Assembly (NCBI GenBank): GCA_017428785.1
Contig: JAFRQD010000058.1
Span: 60,385-124,384, forward strand
DNA: 64,000 bases
DNA from: Bacteroidaceae bacterium
GTDB taxonomy: Bacteria > Bacteroidota > Bacteroidia > Bacteroidales > Bacteroidaceae
Direction: 5' to 3'
Below are positions 3,567 through 59,530 of the stretch, piece after piece. The notes under the pieces were generated by a model, which was given only the letters and a program-made list of their open reading frames with translations, ran no database searches and was not told where the DNA came from. The position numbers were made by a program, and so were the translations under genes. Position 1 is the stretch's first letter, and each line of letters begins with the position of its first letter.

Positions 3567-3658
3567 ACTACACACGTGTAGTCGGCAAACATCACACGTG
3601 GATTTTGCCAAGTTCACACGTGGATTTTGCAAACATCACACGTGGATTTTGCCAACGA
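3567..3658. repeat. Four-unit 22-bp phased array with CACACGTG core
   Basis: The core CACACGTG starts at 3571, 3593, 3615 and 3637, exactly 22 bp apart. Three of the four units continue GGATTTTGC(C/A)AA. The first unit contains the palindrome ACACGTGT. The array fills most of the gap between the GH18-A2M gene (stop at 3681) and the upstream end of the SGNH gene, both on the minus strand. It has the same geometry as the CCGC-core arrays elsewhere in the window but a different core. Confidence 0.85.
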
Positions 3659-3680
3659 CTCTGTAGCTGTTTCCTGACGA

Positions 3681-6600
3681 CTACTTTACCTTGAACTTTT
3701 CACCCGCAGTTTGCGATTGGTATTCGGGTGCATAAAGGCAAGTCAGGCGAGCAGGAGGCAGGAGATAATTGCCGTCGCGACTGATGAGCCAATCTTCTTC
3801 GATGACATACGTGCCTCGAGGCATGCGGTCCATGAAGTATTCCGTGCTGGCATCGTGCATCGCCTGGTAATAGCCCAGACCGCCTTGCCAATGATAGCCC
3901 GAAAGCTGCCGGACAGGTTCGGTCGCTGCAGGACGAGGCGCCTTCAAGCAAACATATTCGTAATCTCTGTCTGCCGTTATCGTATAGCGGACATGGACTC
4001 TGTCGCCAGTTCTCCATTGACCATCGGCCATTGACCCATTCCTGTTCTCTGAAGAAACCTCTCGGCGGATGGTCATTCCTTCGCGATTGCTCTCTACTTC
4101 AGCAGCCGGCAATTGGCACTGAGCATAGACCGTCCCCCAGGAAAGACCATTCGCTTTGTACTTTTGCTCGATAGTTAACGCCTTTGCCTTGCCGATGTCC
4201 TCGATTTGCTCGCGGATGTATCCGTAGTCAGCCTCGGGCTTCTGCAACTTGCGAGTCTGGTTGTCGTATGTGACCTTACCGCTCCATTGGCCGCTTTCCG
4301 TATGGAAGTCGCTCTGCAACAAAGCATAAATCGCATCGGCCGACTGGATGGGCTGATCCCATTCCTGACTCCTCTTCTGCAAGATGAGCCATTCAGCCAT
4401 CTTGGCAAGCAGCTCTTTCTCGCCAGGTTCTACGGTGAAGACGGCCTCCATGAAGTTGGCGTGTGCCTCCACTTTGCGGTCGATGCTCACGAACGAACCG
4501 CTCGGATAGGCAATATACATGCCGTCGCTGTGGCGAAGCAACTCGTGGATGCGTGGCATCAGAGCCTGCGCCTTCTTGTCCTCGCCTGTTCTCTTCAGCA
4601 CGATTGCGGCAAGGGCACGTTCCTCTCGGTCGTAGTCCTCGGCTTGCTTCTTCAGAAGAGAAAGGAGATATTTGGCATCCTCGTTGGGCCTTTCCTTATA
4701 CATTATATATATATATAGGTAGCGGAGCTGGTAGAAGGAAAGTATGGGCTTCTTCTCCTTTCGCAGCGCCTCGACGTCCTGGTGCATATCCTTCTCGAGG
4801 AAAGACAGCGCCTTGTCGAGTATCTGACGCTCGGGAACAGACAAGACATCCTTGATGTCGCCAAGTCGCGAAAGCAGCATGGCCACCTCAGTTGTCATCC
4901 ATACGCTGCCACTCATGCCTGGGAACCAGCCGAACGAGCCGTCGGCGTGCTGACGGGTAGAGAGGGCGGACAACATCGCCATGCGGCGCTGCTCCTGCTC
5001 CATCTCTGCGAAGAGCGAGGCGATGCGATGCCTGCTGGCCTTCTGATGCTGTGCCTCAATCATCCACGGCGTTTCGTTGAGCAGAATGTCAGATAGCTGC
5101 TGGTTCTTGACAAGCGGACTCTGCAAGACCGGCGAATCCTCTTCATCAGCCCAACGTGAGATGACAGTCCGTAAACCTTCGTACTTATGGGCGAGATGGT
5201 AGGCCACACTTCCGGCATAATAAGCCGTTGCGACCGAAAGGACATCGTTGTGGACGGGAGCCGTCAAGGAGGGCAGAGCCTGCAAAGCAAGGGTGATAGG
5301 CTCCGAAACGTGCTCTACGGTCAAGGTCTTGTTCCTTGCCTTCGGATTGCCGTTGGCGAAGAGTTTCGAGAGGTCCATCGTAAGTGTGGTATCACCTTTG
5401 AGCAGATAAGTCTTTGTCTCTGTCATGTGCTGCATATCGGAGAGGACAGGCAGGTAGCGCACTTCGCCGTCGCTGCTGCCCTTGCCTTTCGCTACCCATT
5501 GCACAGCGAGGACAGGATGGTCGAGGGTCGCGGTGAGCGGCATGTGGTAGATAGCCTCTTTGCCCGGCTCGATGTCGAATGCCACCTTCATCTGCTTGAT
5601 GCTCTTGTTGCCCTCGGCATCAATGACTTTAAGCACAGCCTCGCCTTTCTGGCGTTTCTCCGAGGCATTGCGGATGCTGGCAGTCAGCGTGACTTCATCG
5701 CCGTTACGCACAAAGCGGGGCAATGTCAACTCTGCCATCAGCTCCTTCTTCGCCACGATGGTCTCCTCCCACTCGGCAGTCATCATGTCCTTTGTGTGTG
5801 CCAAGCCATGCAGATGCCACGAGGTCAAGCCTTCGGGCAAAGTGAACTCGATGGACGTCTGGCCTTTGCTGTCTGTCCTTAATTGCGGATAGAAGAAAGC
5901 AAGTTCGGAGAGATTGGAGCGGACGTAGGCATCATCCAACGTTTCGACTGCTTCCTCTGACTCCTCTACATCGCCATAGCCGCGCAAACGCATCGTTGTT
6001 CCTTTTCCCAACGCACCCGAACTTTCAACGATGTCAAGCCCTGCAATCTTACCATGAAGAGCTTGGTCGACAGACTCAAAAGCAAGGCCTTCCACATCGT
6101 CCATCTTGAAGTTCTTGACTGCACCAGCATACTCGCGTGCTGATGCTGCCATCGGAGCTGGAGTTACCATCTCATACACTCTTTTCTCCAACCTGTTTGC
6201 TTCCACGCCCCGAACAAGCATACGCTCGCTTCTTGTCATACGCAATGGCTCGAAGTATTCGATGTTCCAATGCGAGAAGTAATAGTTTTCGGTGGGAAGG
6301 AACTGCAACGGCAGATTGAGGCTTGCATAACGATACCTCCCATACCATCCGAAGTATCCGACACGGAAGAACATGTCGCGATCGCATTGTGTGAAAAGGG
6401 AGATACCTGAACGCATCTCATAGGAAGACAATGCATCGAGCGAAGCATCATACATGCCGACCATGACATTTGCCGAGGCAGGCGTGCCGTCGGGACGCGT
6501 CAAGGTGAGCCGCCACTGCTCCTTTTGCCCGGGTTGCAACTGGTCGCGGAAGGTGTCCCAACGCATCGCAAGCTGTGTTTCGGGCTGTTCAAAGCGGAAG

Positions 6601-59362: not shown

Positions 59363-59400
59363 GCTGCCTGCCAAGGTTCTCCTTGCAGGCAGCATTTTTA
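59363..59400 (+). terminator. Rho-independent terminator of the 4,6-dehydratase gene
   Basis: GCTGCCTGCCAAGG and CCTTGCAGGCAGC form a stem of 13 bp with one bulged C and a TTCT loop, followed by A then five T. It lies 31 nt after the stop codon. Confidence 0.9.
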
Positions 59401-59444
59401 TTTTCTGCACATTGGATTTCCTGTCGGGCCTCAGGCGATTCTTG

Positions 59445-59530
59445 GTGCGCAACTTGCGTTTCTGCAGACGCAGCCTGCGTACGGACAGACGGAGCTTGCG
59501 TCTCTTCATACGCAGCCTGCGTCTGAAGAA
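59445..59530. repeat. Four-unit 21-bp phased array with ACGCA-nnn-TGCGT core (convergent gap)
   Basis: TGCG positions are 59455, 59476, 59497 and 59518, exactly 21 bp apart; ACGCAGCCTGCGT occurs twice in perfect form. The array lies between the terminator at 59363-59400 and the stop codon of the WecA-like gene at 59557. Confidence 0.88.

What the first reader, a model, noticed from the sequence alone, without database searches (positions are those of the whole stretch)
3567..59530. Nine intergenic arrays share one geometry: exactly four palindromic cores at 21- or 22-bp pitch
Arrays at 3567, 10273, 20073, 29437, 40025, 46109, 50934, 55873 and 59445 each have four units and constant spacing (22 bp in two sequence families, 21 bp in a third) although the cores differ. 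Two helical turns per unit places all four cores on one face of the DNA. The arrays occur in convergent, divergent and same-direction gaps, so plain transcription termination does not explain all of them. A common geometry with different sequences suggests related mobile repeats or docking arrays for a family of proteins with different specificities.
Basis: partly seen in the sequence, partly recalled or inferred. Interest (0 to 1): 0.82.

Follow-up and report, generated by a model that had tools for sequence, protein, structure and literature searches.

The report
Palindrome arrays paired with HU-like proteins
Short DNA arrays, mostly four near-palindromes set two helix turns apart, lie between genes all over this bacterium's genome, and arrays of the same design sit in front of many genes for HU-like DNA-binding proteins, which suggests that members of that protein family each have their own DNA address.

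Summary
The nine arrays are real: four cores each, pitch 22 bp (families A, C) or 21 bp (B), between genes. In 464 kb of this genome a family-blind scan found 50 repeats at lag 22, all intergenic. Family A: four units in 35 of 37 arrays, pitch 22 in 104 of 109 steps.

The geometry recurs with other cores in other genera. Orientation is random against genes and paired halves do not covary, so DNA-level recognition fits better than RNA hairpins.

A partner candidate emerged: HU-HIG proteins (PF18291). Arrays score within 300 bp upstream of 21 of 70 HU-HIG genes, downstream of 0 of 70, and upstream of 11 of 235 other genes with a free gap (p 5e-8). The array beside an HU-HIG gene belongs to the family dispersed in that genome: A here, GGTTAACC in G261/G272, AATASTATT in G281. 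A D-to-F core swap between sister species, seen at three dispersed slots, also occurs at the orthologous HU-HIG gene.

'Docking arrays for a protein family with different specificities' gains strong indirect support. Protein binding is not shown.

The parts
3571..3648 (.). Family C array: four CACACGTG-type cores, pitch 22
   Evidence: cores read out; TRF
10271..10344 (.). Family B array: four CGCANNNTGCG-type cores (first CGAAAGCTGCG), pitch 21
20079..20154 (.). Family A array, degenerate: four cores, pitch 22
29444..29519 (-). Family A array: four CCGCRYGCGG cores, pitch 22, element on minus strand
40025..40098 (.). Family B array: four cores, pitch 21
46115..46190 (+). Family A array: four cores, pitch 22; a further CCCTCAAGGG palindrome one step before, in phase
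50940..51015 (-). Family A array: four cores, pitch 22
55880..55955 (+). Family A array: four cores, pitch 22
59448..59521 (.). Family B array: four cores, pitch 21, inside GATTCTT..GAAGAATC inverted ends

Best explanation
The arrays are multi-site DNA targets of HU-HIG proteins (Pfam PF18291), an HU-like family with several to many paralogues per genome in these bacteria. A paralogue, probably as a dimer, reads one near-palindromic 21-22 bp unit; the pitch of two helix turns puts three to four dimers on one face of the DNA for cooperative binding. An array in front of the paralogue's own gene allows autoregulation. In some families, A among them, arrays have spread to many gene ends, mostly just behind stop codons, where the bound block probably acts as a boundary or architectural site. 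When a paralogue's specificity changes in a lineage, its arrays change with it while the geometry stays. Shown here: geometry, spread, 3'-end bias, association with HU-HIG 5' regions, matched family swaps. Inferred: binding, dimers, autoregulation, boundary role, mode of spread.
For: Arrays within 300 bp upstream of 21 of 70 HU-HIG genes against 0 of 70 downstream of the same genes and 12 of 667 other ORFs, or 11 of 235 ORFs with a free gap of at least 150 bp (odds ratio 8.7, p 4.6e-8). Limited to pitch 21-24. Mostly different cores for paralogues of one genome (9 of 15 fetched G135 genes by eye, 7 of 15 by score). This genome: A, C and D arrays score within 300 bp of three of eight HU-HIG genes, an F-type array scores just under the threshold at a fourth, and a B array lies at -556 of a fifth. 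Orthologues of the A-flanked gene have a GGTTAACC tetrad in G261 and G272 and an AATASTATT tetrad in G281; genome-wide pairs of these: 325, 295 and 25, and 0 here and in G194. The D-to-F swap occurs at three dispersed slots and at the orthologous HU-HIG gene. Random orientation and absent covariation point to DNA recognition. Three of ten records from the plasmid and phage collections repeat the pattern.
Against: No binding data. 49 of 70 HU-HIG genes score no array; a later-scored genome gave 0 of 4 (G005). Of six relatives with an orthologue of the A-flanked gene, three have no array at the threshold (G268, G254, G257), and G268 yet holds 22 dispersed GGTTAACC-type pairs. An array of an abundant family may land beside an HU-HIG gene by chance: 19 of 335 genes here have an A array within 300 bp upstream, 3 a D, 1 an F. 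HU-HIG genes counted are related to each other, so p values are optimistic. HU folds bind DNA with little sequence preference in well-known cases (recalled).
Confidence: 0.68

Rival explanations
1. The arrays are operators and dispersed sites of another, unidentified DNA-binding protein; HU-HIG genes are only frequent targets of it.
For: The association is with HU-HIG 5' regions, where a regulator of these genes would also bind; in 9 of 21 positive regions a -7-like box ends within 36 bp before the array (no chance control). Some arrays lie upstream of other genes (11 of 235).
Against: Cores differ between paralogues of one genome, so many different regulators would be needed, each tied to one HU-HIG gene.
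Confidence: 0.14
2. The arrays are mobile repeats (MITE- or REP-like) that spread by a transposase and settle in intergenic DNA; HU-HIG neighbourhoods are just favoured places.
For: A is one oriented element with hundreds of copies and is found in few genomes; B has inverted ends; A often carries an outer CCCTNNAGGG palindrome resembling the hairpins beside the one Y1_Tnp gene.
Against: Y1_Tnp gave no match in 20 of 32 genomes, among them G135, G163, G177, G008 and G009, which have arrays. No clean empty site or target duplication seen in the nine orthologous gaps read. Pitch is kept to the base while spacers vary. 0 of 70 arrays downstream of HU-HIG genes.
Confidence: 0.13
3. The arrays work as RNA: hairpin trains that end or protect transcripts behind genes.
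For: In same-direction gaps of two genomes 41 of 49 arrays lie nearer the upstream stop, median 32 bp; A elements fold as one long hairpin, mean -52 kcal/mol, z about -6 against mononucleotide shuffles, 31 elements.
Against: Terminator-like sites lie inside arrays at 11 of 56 array-bearing 3' ends, outside them at 13 of 56, against 32 of 106 ends without an array. Orientation 9 same, 11 opposite. No covariation, anti-palindromic centre. Rfam 0 matches in the window. HU-HIG arrays lie at 5' ends.
Confidence: 0.04

Closest known systems
BrickBuilt MITE of Porphyromonas gingivalis (PMC4596501; outline with abstract, section 5, section 7 part 1 of 2 and section 8 read)
   Same: Intergenic arrays of 23-nt tandem repeats in Bacteroidales, predicted to form stem-loops; one copy lies beside a PF00216 DNA-binding protein gene (its Table 1).
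   Different: There 1 to 22.8 repeats, pitch 23, 19 copies, long leader and tail with IS5-like ends; here mostly four units, pitch 21-22, hundreds of copies, many core families.
REP/BIME repeats with their RAYT (Y1_Tnp) transposases (PMC6006769, PMC3733652; passages read)
   Same: Dispersed extragenic palindromes, cognate gene flanked by its own repeats, diversification with the protein.
   Different: No Y1_Tnp match in 20 of 32 genomes; fixed 22-bp tetrads instead of single or paired hairpins; the associated gene is HU-like, not a transposase.
Dispersed sites of chromosome-organising proteins, such as parS-ParB, matS-MatP, Noc sites, IHF (recalled)
   Same: Many dispersed, often palindromic sites read by one protein.
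   Different: Multi-site phased arrays, a paralogue family with different cores, and cores that switch between sister species.
BldC binding direct repeats as cooperative multimers (PMC5859096; search listing only)
   Same: Cooperative multimer on repeated sites as a precedent for the mechanism.
   Different: Another protein family and organism; not compared further.

Membership tests
BrickBuilt MITE | 23-nt unit in variable number | tested here: not met
   A: pitch 22 in 104 of 109 steps, four units in 35 of 37 arrays
BrickBuilt MITE | leader and tail with IS5-like terminal inverted repeats | not tested
   ends of A and B were read but not compared with IS5 ends
REP/RAYT | cognate Y1_Tnp transposase in the genome | tested here: not met
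   one gene here, none in G194 although it has the same A arrays; no match in 20 of 32 genomes
REP/RAYT | hairpin maintained by pairing | tested here: not met
   no covariation of halves, centre bases pair in 2.4% of units against 30.5% expected
Intrinsic terminators | hairpin followed by T-run at 3' ends | tested here: inconclusive
   inside arrays at 11 of 56 ends; A has CGTTTT edges
Known RNA families (Rfam) | match at gathering score | tested here: not met
   0 matches in the window
Cognate arrays of HU-HIG proteins | array near the cognate gene more often than near others | tested here: met
   21 of 70 upstream, 0 of 70 downstream, 11 of 235 controls
Cognate arrays of HU-HIG proteins | dispersed family equals family at the HU-HIG gene and swaps with it | tested here: met
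   G261, G272, G281 and D/F; misses G268, G254, G257 at that locus
Cognate arrays of HU-HIG proteins | physical binding by the paralogue | not testable with these tools
   needs DAP-seq, ChIP-seq or EMSA

The most novel reading that the evidence does not exclude
Bacteroidales carry a sequence-addressed chromatin code: a large family of HU-like proteins in which paralogues read their own arrays, typically four sites at two-turn pitch, control themselves and mark gene ends, with protein specificity and many genomic sites switching together between sister species, much as PRDM9 and its hotspots do (analogy recalled).
Probability: 0.43. Interest if true: 0.93.

Novelty: categorically new. Interest (0 to 1): 0.86.

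Why it matters
It would give a role and a DNA code to a large HU-like family of abundant gut and rumen bacteria, explain a class of intergenic repeats, and supply natural experiments in which a DNA-binding specificity and many genomic sites changed together. It is directly testable, because many paralogues come with a predicted site.

Tried and rejected
RNA or terminator function: folding looked good, but covariation, orientation and terminator scans spoke against it. RAYT-driven REP: no Y1_Tnp match in 20 of 32 genomes. Clean insertion boundaries or target duplications: not seen in the nine gaps read. Palindrome-centre autocorrelation at a strict threshold and over unmasked DNA of other genera gave no 22-bp peak; the gene-masked, looser version did. 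The built-in 'control' of the CATG search, GTAC, is itself a palindrome and also found in arrays, so it is no control; by my own estimate about 0.2 matches per genome are expected by chance, and many genomes have just one. The first HU-HIG upstream counts took some loci in the wrong orientation; one search replaces them. The family C pattern missed C arrays and is not used. Counting HU_rel matches per genome (1-19 in 20 genomes chosen mostly as array-rich, 2 in each of five chosen as array-poor) was the lead, but the model also rings on plain HU in 9 of 14 control genomes, so it is weak evidence. HU-HIG relatives in viral contigs by two close-relative scans: none. Literature searches listed no paper on such tetrads or on HU-HIG sites; subscription papers are mostly not held.

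Full report
Observation. In a 464-kb sample of this 2.98-Mb draft genome (window, 20 kb beside it, stretches of contigs C2 and C24) a family-blind scan found 50 repeats at lag 22, none in a gene, 5 at lag 21, 3 at lag 20, and 0-4 for other lags or pools except lag 44, a multiple, with 35. Palindrome centres in intergenic DNA peak at 22, 44 and 66 bp (88, 75 and 41 pairs; 6.8-, 6.6- and 4.1-fold), not in coding DNA. With cores allowed one mismatch, A arrays of this genome and a relative (G194) together have four units in 35 of 37 cases and pitch 22 in 104 of 109 steps; with looser cores and exact steps, 23 of 40 have four. Genome-wide A gives 432 triple-core matches, 0 for the reversed pattern.

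Anatomy. A behaves as one oriented element: unit 1 commonly points one way and units 2-4 the other (LRRR, or LLLR read from the other strand), with AAAACG..CGTTTT edges and often a CCCTNNAGGG-type palindrome one step further out, in phase. D (TGCATCATGATGCA) and F (ATACATGTAT) have three cores flanked by A-, C- or E-type cores in the same phase (distances counted by eye). A, C and E share a CACG centre with different arms (by eye). In same-direction gaps of the two genomes 41 of 49 arrays are nearer the upstream stop, median 32 bp against 121 bp to the next start. Arrays per gap of 100 bp or more: same-direction 36 for 85, convergent 12 for 27, divergent 8 for 35.

DNA or RNA. A elements fold well (mean -52 kcal/mol, z about -6 against mononucleotide shuffles, 31 elements). 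But the halves of one element pair no better than halves swapped between elements, and the two centre bases are complementary in 2.4% of 124 units where 30.5% is expected, so perfect palindromes are avoided. Orientation against the upstream gene is 9 same, 11 opposite. Terminator-like sites lie inside arrays at 11 of 56 array-bearing 3' ends. Sequence recognition at the DNA level fits best.

Spread. In 8 further same-genus genomes (about 20 kb each) intergenic palindromes also peak at 22 bp, 15 pairs, 4.2-fold. In 15 such genomes lag hits are 10 at 22 and 9 at 21, but also 6 at 28 and 4 at 18; in 13 genomes of other genera 2 at 22 and 0 at every other lag tried. CATG three times at pitch 22 occurs in 87 of 251 genomes of the family, 24 of 30 genera, many with one match; CACG in 117 of 251. 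Further stretches of six genomes of other genera, partly chosen at such matches, show 22-bp arrays with their own cores, often three or four units.

Change between sister species. This genome and G194 share long syntenic blocks, mostly 74-92% identical. Of 48 arrays on C2 and C24, 18 could be mapped by both flanks and 9 of these had an array in the orthologous gap. Some keep the family, such as A with four units; others swap it in register, such as C to E. D here is F there at three slots, one anchored by both flanks and two by the downstream flank only. Misses: one D slot faces a C-type array and two F slots face other arrays, not D. In the samples D has 6 arrays here and 0 in G194, F 1 here and 6-7 there.

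Partner. Y1_Tnp, the REP transposase, was tried first and fails: no match in 20 of 32 genomes. HU_rel proteins were tried next because they are many-copied in these bacteria; they belong to Pfam HU-HIG. Upstream of their genes I saw arrays with mostly private cores: in complete genome G135, 9 of 15 fetched genes (of 19 matches) by eye and 7 of 15 by score (GACCCGGGTC, CACCCGGGTG, CTCGGCCGAG, GATGTACATC, CGACCTGCGCAGGTCG, GGGTCGCGACCC, TTTTGTACA, and CATGTACATG twice). A score for four similar palindromes at a given pitch, threshold 27, finds an array within 300 bp upstream of 21 of 70 distinct HU-HIG genes that I had fetched (not every such gene of any genome), downstream of 0 of 70, and upstream of 12 of 667 other ORFs. 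With the fairer control of ORFs having a free gap of 150 bp or more it is 11 of 235, odds ratio 8.7, p 4.6e-8. The excess is confined to pitch 21-24 (17, 21, 21 and 4 genes; 0-2 at 17-20 and 25-28). Scored later: G005 0 of 4, and G163, a close relative of G135, 6 of 12. The genes are related, so p is optimistic. Of 17 records found by protein search among plasmids and phages I fetched 10; 3 had arrays: Phocaeicola massiliensis, Parabacteroides distasonis, Bacteroides finegoldii.

Matching families. This genome has eight HU-HIG genes apart from matches that look like plain HU. Within 300 bp upstream, three score: A (C24:108708), C (C2:108403) and D (C41); an F-type array at C12 scores 26.8; a B array lies at -556 of C24:172547; the other three show weak CACG-type or other pairs. 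G194 orthologues carry A, C and, for the D gene, F, behind the same preceding gene end. So the D-to-F change at dispersed slots occurs at the HU-HIG gene too. Orthologues of the A-flanked gene at 73-78% identity have GGTTAACC tetrads in G261 and G272 and an AATASTATT tetrad in G281; three others (G268, G254, G257) have none at the threshold. I then searched 18 genomes: GGTTAACC-type pairs number 325 and 295 in G261 and G272, 22 in G268, 0-2 in the other 15; AATASTATT 25 in G281, 11 in G166, 1 in G110, 0 in the other 15. So where an array is present at this gene, it is of the family dispersed in that genome. A caveat: if the locus simply receives whatever family is abundant, the match would follow too. 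The 0 of 70 downstream count and the different cores within G135 argue against that. Within this genome, chance gives an A array within 300 bp upstream of 19 of 335 genes, D of 3, F of 1, so A alone proves nothing.

Mechanism. Most likely an HU-HIG paralogue binds its units cooperatively, two turns apart, controls its own gene and occupies gene ends. Association and matched swaps are shown; binding, regulation and the purpose at gene ends are inferred. The D, F and B partners have C-terminal extensions that may be winged helices (Pfam describes HU-HIG as HU fused to wHTH, Ig or Gly-rich parts; the assignment is mine). In 9 of 21 positive regions a -7-like box ends within 36 bp before the array, as for an operator; there was no chance control for this.

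Known or new. BrickBuilt (PMC4596501) and REP-RAYT (PMC6006769, PMC3733652) are nearest; neither fits in unit geometry or partner. My paper searches listed no account of these tetrads or of HU-HIG sites, but most subscription papers are not held, and the paper that I recall as defining HU-HIG could not be fetched. I rate the system categorically new if binding holds; until then it is a strong genomic association.

Noticed in passing
L071:1300-2000 (G000 contig C56): The single Y1_Tnp (RAYT) gene of this genome is flanked by GCCCTGAAAGGGC-type hairpins that resemble the outer palindromes of A elements.
   Followed up: partly
window, e.g. 11899, 29362, 32907, 37917: Frequent short tandem repeats of period 7: 26 of 172 TRF rows in the 464-kb sample.
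   Followed up: no
window 17206-17484: Tandem repeats of period 78 inside a long open reading frame, in frame.
   Followed up: no
L033-L049 sample: C24:76151, C24:76993, C24:152354; G194 C1:99620: A 20-bp-pitch CCTAGG array family, one copy kept at the orthologous place in G194.
   Followed up: no
L260, L262, L265, L268, L269, L270 upstream regions: Several HU-HIG genes share a GGGGTTAACAA...TATATAA block upstream, perhaps a common promoter (by eye).
   Followed up: no
L279, L281 (Parabacteroides distasonis): HU genes in DUF3987-DUF4248-HU-smalltalk-amidase clusters had no array upstream.
   Followed up: partly
NZ_OY725757.1 (L284): A 422-kb record filed as a plasmid carries rpsL next to the HU gene, so it may be a chromosome piece.
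   Followed up: no
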